Of a DNA stretch of 64,000 nt, positions 17,769 to 18,956 are shown in pieces (the first letter of the stretch is position 1; the number at the start of each line of letters is the position of its first letter). The notes below the pieces were generated by a model that did no database searches, was not told the origin of the DNA, and saw only the letters and a list, made by a program, of their open reading frames with translations. The DNA comes from Bryobacterales bacterium (GTDB taxonomy: Bacteria > Acidobacteriota > Terriglobia > Bryobacterales > Bryobacteraceae). The position numbers were made by a program, and so were the translations under genes. The stretch is taken from NCBI GenBank assembly GCA_003167495.1, contig PMSX01000342.1, forward strand, positions 82,122-146,121, written 5' to 3'.

Positions 17769-18956
17769 ATGGCTGCGCGATTGCTTCTGCTGGCGTGTTC
17801 GCTGGTGTCGTTTGCCTGTTTTGCGGTGCCGATGTACGTGATCAGACCGTTCCGGCATCAGGGTGCGCGTGAACTGGCGGTTGCTTTGTTCGTGAAGCAA
17901 ATTGGGCCGGGGCTTTCGGCTATTTGCGCGGTGATTGCGGTCGCAATTGTGATTCTTGGCTGGAAACGGATGCGTGGCTGGATGACCCGGCTTGCTATGG
18001 TAGGTGCGCTTTTCCTGGCGCTCGGCGGGGCGTACTTATCGCGTGTAAATGTATATGAGCGGATGTTTCACCCACTGGGACCTCCGCGGTTCGACGCGGC
18101 AAAAGACGCTCGCATTGACAAAGACGATATGGTGCTTGTGGTTCGCGTGAACGGCGAACCTCGCGCATATCCGATTCGCGAGATGGCCTATCATCACGTA
18201 GTCAACGACACGGTGGGTCGGGAGCCGATTGTCTCCACTTATTGAACTCTATGTCACACCGGTCTGGTGTGGGCGCGGACAGTCAGGGGCTTGGTGCTGA
18301 CGTTTCATTTGGCCGGCATCAACAATCAAAACTTTCTGATGCGAGACGATCAGACGGGCACGTTCTGGCAACAGATCAATGGGCGTGCGATATCAGGTCC
18401 GCTGACGGGTTCGCACTTGGCGCCGGTGCATAGCGACGAACTGACGTTTGCCTTGTGGCGTAGCGAAGCGCCCGATGGGACGGTGCTGAAGGCTCTGGCG
18501 AAGGATGCAAACGAGTATGAGACGAAGGATTGGGATGTGCGGATTGCGAAAGTGCGCACAGTGCTCGATTTCCCGAATTCTGGATTGCGCTCTCGCGATC
18601 TGGTGCTCGGCGTGGATGCGTTTGGCGCGAGTCGGGCCTATCCGGTGGAACGTATCTTTTCGGCGAAGCTGATTGAAGATCGTTTGGGAGGCGAGGCCAT
18701 TCTTATTGTGGCGGGACCGGACGGCAAGTCGGTCCGAGTGTTTGAGGCGCGAGTGGCTGGGCAAGAGGTAACGCCGGAGTTTTATAGGACCGGCGATGTG
18801 CTAATGGACTCGGAGACGGGCAGTGAATGGAATTTCAGCGGTTGCGCCGTCCGAGGGAAGCGAACGGGCGCTTGTTTGAAAGCGGTAGATGCGCTGAAAG
18901 ATTATTGGTTTGATTGGCGGAATTATCATCCAACAACGACGATCTTCCGGCGTTGA
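17769..18956 (+). CDS. DUF3179-like protein with in-frame TGA at 18243-18245; candidate selenoprotein (Sec159)
   Basis: ORFs 17751..18245 and 18267..18956 share a frame (516 nt apart). Read-through gives DKDDMVLVVRVNGEPRAYPIREMAYHHVVNDTVGREPIVSTY-[TGA]-TLCHTGLVWARTVRGLVLTFHLAGINNQNFLMRDDQTGTFWQQINGRAISGPLTGSHLAPV...DALKDYWFDWRNYHPTTTIFRR, a continuous DUF3179 fold signature with TGA at the TYCxxC cysteine. Confidence 0.78.
18243..18274 (+). promoter_or_regulatory. Candidate bacterial SECIS hairpin immediately downstream of the TGA
   Basis: TGA actctatgt CACACC GGTCT GGTGTG g: 6 perfect pairs (18255-18260 with 18266-18271) plus one T-G wobble, 5-nt loop GGTCT (18261-18265), loop starting 15 nt after the TGA. 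Confidence 0.65.

What the first reader, a model, noticed from the sequence alone, without database searches (positions are those of the whole stretch)
17769..18956. Candidate new selenoprotein: DUF3179 protein with UGA at the conserved TYCxxC cysteine and a SECIS-like hairpin
Seen directly: ORFs 17751..18245 and 18267..18956 are in the same frame, separated only by TGA 18243-18245, and the codons from the TGA on read U-T-L-C-H-T-G-L-V-W-A-R. The downstream 236 codons stay open and keep the family pattern (LTFHLAGINNQNFLMRDDQTGTFWQQINGRAISGPLTG). Immediately 3' lies CACACC-GGTCT-GGTGTG, 6 perfect pairs and a GGUCU loop starting 15 nt after the UGA. Established knowledge: DUF3179 proteins usually carry a TYCPLC-type CxxC at this point; Sec typically replaces redox Cys; bacterial SECIS elements lie just after the UGA and have a G (often GGU) at the start of the apical loop, as in E. 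coli fdhF (AGGUCU). Inference: UGA encodes Sec (residue 159 from the 17769 start), giving a UxxC redox motif in a family of unknown function. I do not recall this family as a known selenoprotein.
Basis: partly seen in the sequence, partly recalled or inferred. Interest (0 to 1): 0.94.

Follow-up and report, generated by a model that had tools for sequence, protein, structure and literature searches.

The report
Acidobacterial DUF3179 selenoprotein gene
The gene really does seem to read one UGA stop codon as the rare amino acid selenocysteine (all the genomic evidence agrees), but its protein family had already been listed as a selenoprotein family, so this is a well-supported new member, widespread in soil Acidobacteriota, and not a new family.

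Summary
Observation confirmed, interpretation right, novelty claim wrong. Window 17769-18956 is one DUF3179 (PF11376) gene with an in-frame UGA at 18243 exactly where homologues have Cys. The genome holds selA, selB, selC (tRNA-Sec, UCA anticodon) and selD. All six DUF3179 genes found in the genus carry UGA at this column; 113 distinct Sec genes were seen in all, with no in-frame TAA/TAG among listed matches. The hairpin alone proves little (fold z = 0.16), but its conservation does: 78 of 89 distinct Sec genes of this subfamily share the same 17 nt, with a few compensatory changes. Sister genes with TGC instead of TGA encode nearly the same residues with drifting codons and a broken hairpin, and 9 of 10 of their genomes lack selA. 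Sec looks ancestral in this subfamily; the Cys genes form one nested clade. DUF3179 (UxxC/T) is already in published selenoprotein tables (PMC9312934, PMC13188914) and NCBI names relatives '(seleno)protein'; none is experimentally verified. New here: phylum-wide distribution, two differently placed SECIS hairpins, one Sec-to-Cys reversion, and a predicted tandem Rieske-like fold with Sec/Cys and an invariant His at Rieske-like spacing, suggesting an exported, membrane-anchored redox protein.

The parts
17769..18956 (+). DUF3179 selenoprotein gene, 395 residues with Sec159, ending at TGA 18954-18956 with an in-frame TAG right behind it (start could also be TTG 17751)
   Evidence: nearest relative 80% identical over the aligned protein
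18243..18245 (+). UGA codon read as selenocysteine (Sec159)
   Evidence: TGA in the same column in all fetched Sec-form relatives, Cys in the others
18254..18272 (+). SECIS hairpin: U18254-G18272 plus six Watson-Crick pairs 18255-18260/18266-18271, apical loop GGUCU 18261-18265
18243..18254 (+). redox motif U-T-L-C (Sec159 to Cys162)
   Evidence: column 159 Cys/Sec in 179 of 179 aligned rows; Cys at 162 in 160 of 179
18192..18209 (+). codons His142 to Asp147; His142 conserved in 176 of 179 and Asp147 in 174 of 179 rows, His or Glu at 143 in 179 of 179 minus at most one: probable partners of Sec159
17772..18038 (+). three predicted transmembrane-type helices (residues 2-24, 33-64, 71-90), membrane anchor
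   Evidence: AlphaFold2 model, pLDDT 95; topology inferred
18126..18449 (+). repeat 1, carries the Sec; Rieske-like fold predicted
18591..18884 (+). repeat 2, similar fold predicted, lacks the UxxC motif
   Evidence: 31% identity to repeat 1, BLASTP E 3e-9; secondary structure

Best explanation
The gene encodes a membrane-anchored, probably periplasm-facing DUF3179 selenoprotein. SelB, bound to the GGU-loop hairpin just after the UGA, delivers Sec-tRNA(Sec) to UGA 18243, giving Sec159 in a UTLC motif (strongly supported by comparative genomics, not by experiment). The protein folds as two tandem Rieske-like beta domains; only the first keeps the active-site residues (prediction). The most likely chemistry (inference) is that Sec159, activated by the conserved His142/Asp147 neighbourhood and resolved by Cys162 where present, acts as the redox-active nucleophile of an exported oxidoreductase, at the place where a Rieske protein would hold a cluster ligand. 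The confidence given is for the Sec-insertion part; for the redox-nucleophile part I would say about 0.6.
For: Sec: complete selA/selB/selC/selD. 6 of 6 DUF3179 genes in the genus have one TGA at the same column. In 396 Acidobacteriota genomes every stop printed inside a DUF3179 match is a single TGA; 51 of 51 fetched sit at this column; 113 distinct Sec genes in all. By my reading of the two printed tables, 45 of 47 genomes with a TGA copy have selA against 256 of 396 overall (p = 1e-7). TGA-form genomes 8 of 8 have selA, TGC-form 1 of 10 (p = 4e-4). Hairpin pairs all standard in 67 of 70 TGA genes but 3 of 10 TGC genes (p = 4e-6). Compensatory changes ACC/GGT to ACT/AGT in Nannocystis and to ACG/CGT in L151, CAC/GTG to CAT/GTA in L070. 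Fold: AlphaFold2 pLDDT 95; nearly all high-probability PDB matches are Rieske proteins, best TM 0.62 by target length to a Rieske ferredoxin for the isolated repeat. Export: signal-peptide- or lipobox-like N-termini in the other subfamilies, by eye.
Against: No protein-level evidence of Sec exists here. Foldseek E-values for the Rieske match are weak (best 6e-3), and a profile comparison with cytochrome-bc-type Rieske proteins found nothing. The UGA-to-loop spacing of 15 nt is one short of the 16-37 nt in the published bacterial SECIS model. Cys162 is replaced in 14 of 24 Sec rows of the other subfamilies, so a dithiol-type mechanism is not general. Gene neighbours are hardly conserved and give no hint of function. 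The p-values ignore shared ancestry.
Confidence: 0.95

Rival explanations
1. A pseudogene or sequencing error: the TGA is a real or false nonsense mutation of a Cys codon.
For: One base change turns TGC/TGT into TGA; the genome is a draft of 396 contigs with 7.6% estimated contamination.
Against: 113 distinct genes carry TGA in the same column and stay open behind it; no in-frame TAA/TAG among the listed matches; a hairpin under codon-level constraint only in TGA genes.
Confidence: 0.01
2. UGA is read as another amino acid, or is leaky stop readthrough without selenocysteine.
For: An open frame behind a stop is what readthrough gives too.
Against: The gene's own terminator is TGA, so UGA is not reassigned genome-wide; the column is Cys in every form without TGA; TGA forms go with selA, TGC forms mostly without it; the hairpin loop has GGU as in known SECIS elements.
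Confidence: 0.02
3. The two halves are separate proteins: 17769-18245 ends at the UGA and 18267 (GTG) starts a second gene.
For: Gene finders call it so: public catalogues hold a 229-residue piece 91% identical to the second half (P0004).
Against: Cys relatives are one unbroken protein; the split would cut the conserved domain just behind its most conserved motif; the hairpin would have no role.
Confidence: 0.02
4. On function: Sec159 is a metal ligand (with His142 and Cys162) and not a redox nucleophile.
For: Rieske-like fold, with conserved His142 and Cys/Sec159-x-x-Cys162 at the spacing of Rieske cluster ligands.
Against: Only part of a Rieske ligand set is there; Cys162 is often replaced in Sec forms of the other subfamilies; Sec is far commoner as a catalytic residue than as a purely structural ligand (general knowledge).
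Confidence: 0.3

Closest known systems
DUF3179 domain-containing selenoprotein (PF11376; UxxC/T), credited to Zhang & Gladyshev 2007 and listed in PMC9312934 and PMC13188914
   Same: Same Pfam family and same UxxC motif; predicted, not verified, there as here.
   Different: The listing credits a marine deltaproteobacterial symbiont; this is an acidobacterial subfamily with a three-helix membrane anchor. The 2007 paper was not held, so I could not align its sequence.
NCBI 'DUF3179 domain-containing (seleno)protein' of Edaphobacter/Tunturiibacter
   Same: Same subfamily, 51-54% identical; the name already allows for Sec.
   Different: The Edaphobacter-type genes examined here carry TGC, have lost the hairpin and mostly lack selA; the window gene carries TGA.
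Bacterial SECIS elements such as E. coli fdhF
   Same: Hairpin directly behind the UGA, GGUCU in the apical loop (fdhF from general knowledge).
   Different: No bulged U; loop 15 nt behind the UGA, one below the published 16-37 nt range.
Rieske-fold domains (Rieske ferredoxins, NirD)
   Same: Best PDB fold matches of the isolated repeat, TM 0.56-0.62 by target length.
   Different: The CxH...CxxH cluster ligand set is not conserved; tandem repeat; no detectable sequence similarity.

Membership tests
DUF3179 (PF11376) | Score above Pfam's gathering cut-off of 27 bits | tested here: met
   216 bits, E 7.8e-64, profile positions 9-292 of 292
Bacterial selenoprotein | In-frame UGA aligned with Cys of homologues, open frame beyond | tested here: met
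Bacterial selenoprotein | Sec machinery (selA, selB, selC, selD) in the genome | tested here: met
   selA 497 bits, selB 367, selD 360, tRNA-Sec 79.5, all over cut-off
Bacterial selenoprotein | Recurrence of UGA at the site in related species | tested here: met
   6 of 6 genes in the genus; 113 distinct Sec genes
Bacterial SECIS (model quoted) | 3-9 nt loop, 4-16 bp upper stem, G in the first two loop positions, MFE at or below -7.5 kcal/mol | tested here: met
   5-nt loop GGUCU, 6-7 bp, -9.5 kcal/mol
Bacterial SECIS (model quoted) | 16-37 nt between UGA and apical loop | tested here: not met
   15 nt here, the same in the 78 Sec genes with the identical element; 20 nt in the other subfamilies
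Bacterial selenoprotein | Selenium shown in the protein | not testable with these tools
   needs 75Se labelling or mass spectrometry
Rieske [2Fe-2S] protein | Ligand set CxH-x(15-17)-CxxH | tested here: not met
   only His142 and Sec159 sit at matching spacing; first Cys and second His absent
Rieske fold (without cluster) | Structural similarity to Rieske domains | tested here: inconclusive
   Foldseek probability up to 1.00, TM up to 0.62, but E-values above 0.001; hhalign no match

The most novel reading that the evidence does not exclude
DUF3179 is a tandem, cluster-less Rieske-fold enzyme in which the former cluster ligand motif CxxH became a U/C-x-x-C(A/T) site next to an invariant His, so that these bacteria use selenocysteine where a Rieske protein holds iron-sulphur. 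This would be a selenoenzyme site on a fold not known (to me) to carry Sec.
Probability: 0.35. Interest if true: 0.62.

Novelty: new member of a known kind. Interest (0 to 1): 0.37.

Why it matters
A family of unknown function keeps selenocysteine at its single invariant Cys column across a whole soil phylum, and gene finders split the gene in two. The TGA and TGC sister clades are a natural control that separates SECIS constraint from protein constraint, and cultured Nannocystis carries the Sec form, so both Sec insertion and the function of the family can be tested.

Tried and rejected
Single-sequence fold statistics for the hairpin: not significant, so not used as evidence. The 2007 Olavius paper is not held. 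Profile comparison of DUF3179 with a Rieske alignment seeded from the same genome: no match; a first repeat alignment with L180 out of frame (A6) was discarded. PDB by sequence: no relative. Pfam scan of 47 members for hidden domains: only DUF3179 was matched by all; the rest were weak hits. Gene neighbourhood as a clue to function: AsnB found near the gene in only one relative, an aldo/keto reductase match in two. Gathering-threshold Rfam scan: no SECIS-type family hit on the element, only tRNA matches. Pseudogene, readthrough and split-gene readings rejected as described.

Full report
Observation. TGA 18243-18245 is the only interruption in a frame that runs to TGA 18954-18956. With Sec at the UGA the 395-residue product matches DUF3179 over nearly its whole profile. 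Taken alone it is not remarkable: folding gave z = 0.16, and 82% of synonymous re-draws of the following residues contain some such hairpin.

Machinery. The genome in which the window lies holds tRNA-Sec with a UCA anticodon (79.5 bits), selB (367 bits), selA (497 bits) and selD (360 bits), all over their curated cut-offs. The assembly is a draft with 7.6% estimated contamination, but selA is over the cut-off in 20 of 21 genomes of the genus and order set, so the machinery is unlikely to be a contaminant. Genomes of the genus in which no DUF3179 was found have selA too, so other selenoproteins probably use it.

Recurrence. Six of 13 genomes of the genus (own included) have a DUF3179 gene, and all six have exactly one TGA, in the same codon, in the context TYUTLCHTGLV. 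In 396 genomes of the phylum the stops printed inside DUF3179 matches are single TGAs, never TAA or TAG. I fetched or already held 51 such genes (window gene included): in all 51 the TGA is in this column. The scan of named genomes added 80 loci: 70 TGA and 10 TGC, some of them the same genomes. Together there are 113 distinct Sec genes and 55 distinct Cys genes; the column is Cys or Sec in 179 of 179 aligned rows.

Link with the machinery. Reading the two printed tables against each other, 45 of 47 genomes with a TGA copy have selA, against 256 of 396 overall (hypergeometric p = 1e-7); the exceptions are G066, which does have selB, and G337. Among named genomes 8 of 8 TGA carriers and 1 of 10 TGC carriers have selA (Fisher p = 4e-4). 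These p-values do not correct for shared ancestry. The tree puts the TGC genes of this subfamily in one well-supported clade nested among TGA genes (100/99), so the simplest history is Sec first, then one change to Cys. The three Nannocystis genes (Myxococcota) sit inside the acidobacterial part of the tree and look like a transfer.

The hairpin as a functional element. In the six congeneric genes, 6 of 8 scorable codons after the UGA are invariant at nucleotide level against 11 of 109 elsewhere, and they form the only run of four or more invariant codons in the gene. Across the subfamily 78 of 89 distinct Sec genes share the identical 17 nt CACACCGGTCTGGTGTG. TGC relatives encode nearly the same residues (HTG[LI][VI]) with other codons; all seven pairs are standard in 67 of 70 TGA genes and 3 of 10 TGC genes. 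Among the exceptions are coordinated changes that keep a pair: ACT..AGT in Nannocystis, ACG..CGT in L151, CAT..GTA in L070. Two genes (L161, L166) seem to have moved the hairpin downstream: CGGGTC-TGGTCTG-GACCCG. The other DUF3179 subfamilies (mostly TWUPL[CA]) carry a hairpin with its loop 20 nt behind the UGA: 22 of 23 distinct sequences keep at least 6 of 7 pairs, 6 of the 7 pairs occur as more than one standard type, and all loops have GU at positions 2-3. Compared with the published bacterial SECIS model the window's element fits loop, stem, G position and energy, and misses the minimum UGA-loop spacing by one nucleotide.

What the protein is. The AlphaFold2 model is confident (pLDDT 95, pTM 0.90): three long N-terminal helices, then two similar beta domains. 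The repeats are recognisable in sequence (31% identity, BLASTP E 3e-9), and only the first has the U-x-x-C motif. Foldseek against the PDB gives nearly only Rieske proteins among the high-probability matches, for the whole model and for repeat 1 folded alone (pLDDT 90), where the highest TM-score is to the naphthalene dioxygenase ferredoxin (0.62 by target length, probability 1.00, but E = 0.1). NirD, which to my knowledge is a Rieske-fold protein without cluster, is among the matches. Profile-profile comparison with the genome's own bc-type Rieske family found nothing, so the fold assignment rests on structure prediction alone. Conserved residues are His142 (176/179), His or Glu at 143, Asp147 (174/179), Cys/Sec159 (179/179) and Cys162 (160/179). 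His142 to residue 159 has 16 residues between, within the 15-17 of the Rieske motif CxH-x(15-17)-CxxH; the rest of that ligand set is absent. Relatives of the other subfamilies seem to begin with signal-peptide- or lipobox-like segments (judged by eye), and the window protein has a hydrophobic anchor, so an extracytoplasmic domain is likely (inference).

How it probably works. Supported by comparative genomics: Sec insertion at UGA 18243 through SelB and the hairpin. Predicted: membrane anchor and Rieske-like tandem fold. Inferred: Sec159 is the reactive residue of an exported redox protein, with His142/Asp147 nearby and Cys162 as resolving residue in this subfamily. Since 14 of 24 Sec rows of the other subfamilies lack Cys162, the general mechanism cannot depend on a U-C pair. 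A metal-binding role is the main functional rival. The substrate is unknown.

Novelty. DUF3179 stands as a selenoprotein family, motif UxxC/T, in reviews of 2022 and 2026 that credit Zhang & Gladyshev 2007 (PMC9312934, PMC13188914), in the group predicted with high confidence, not experimentally verified. NCBI names relatives 'DUF3179 domain-containing (seleno)protein'. So the window gene is a new member of a known kind. The phylum-wide distribution in Acidobacteriota, the two SECIS placements, the Sec-to-Cys clade as internal control and the Rieske-like prediction were not found in the papers searched; only three papers in the library name DUF3179.

Noticed in passing
L011 (contig C326): tRNA-Sec at about 13601-13691, tyrosine-recombinase-like ORF at 12102-13382: An integrase-like gene lies close downstream of the tRNA-Sec gene, which might serve as an integration site.
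   Followed up: no
G066 (L103) and G337 (L049): Sec-form DUF3179 without a selA match; G066 has a selB match over the cut-off, G337 none. Assembly gaps or divergent selA.
   Followed up: partly
L145 (Edaphobacter lichenicola X5P2, G421): Carries selA and selB side by side, yet its DUF3179 of this subfamily has TGC: machinery kept or regained after the Sec-to-Cys change.
   Followed up: partly
L180, L187, L190 (Nannocystis): Sec-form DUF3179 in Myxococcota nested among Acidobacteriota, two of the three with a compensatory base-pair change in the hairpin; selA present. Looks like horizontal transfer.
   Followed up: partly
L172 (MAG labelled Rhodanobacteraceae): Cys-form gene inside the acidobacterial Cys clade: transfer or a mis-binned contig.
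   Followed up: no
BFVD A0A1V0SD44 (Indivirus ILV1): An uncharacterised giant-virus protein is the best viral fold match (E 5e-8), possibly a viral DUF3179 relative.
   Followed up: no
window 13239-17708: Asparagine synthase, MBOAT O-acyltransferase and GDSL-hydrolase genes in a row directly upstream, like an acylated-polysaccharide cluster; not kept beside DUF3179 in relatives, apart from the Asn synthase in L125.
   Followed up: partly
window 22607-25363 (-): Prolyl oligopeptidase (S9) fused to a C-terminal DUF3108 domain.
   Followed up: no
L024 (contig C221): A second SelB-like GTPase ORF of about 400 residues without the SelB C-terminal part; similar ones occur in relatives that lack selA, so it is probably another translation-factor-type GTPase.
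   Followed up: no
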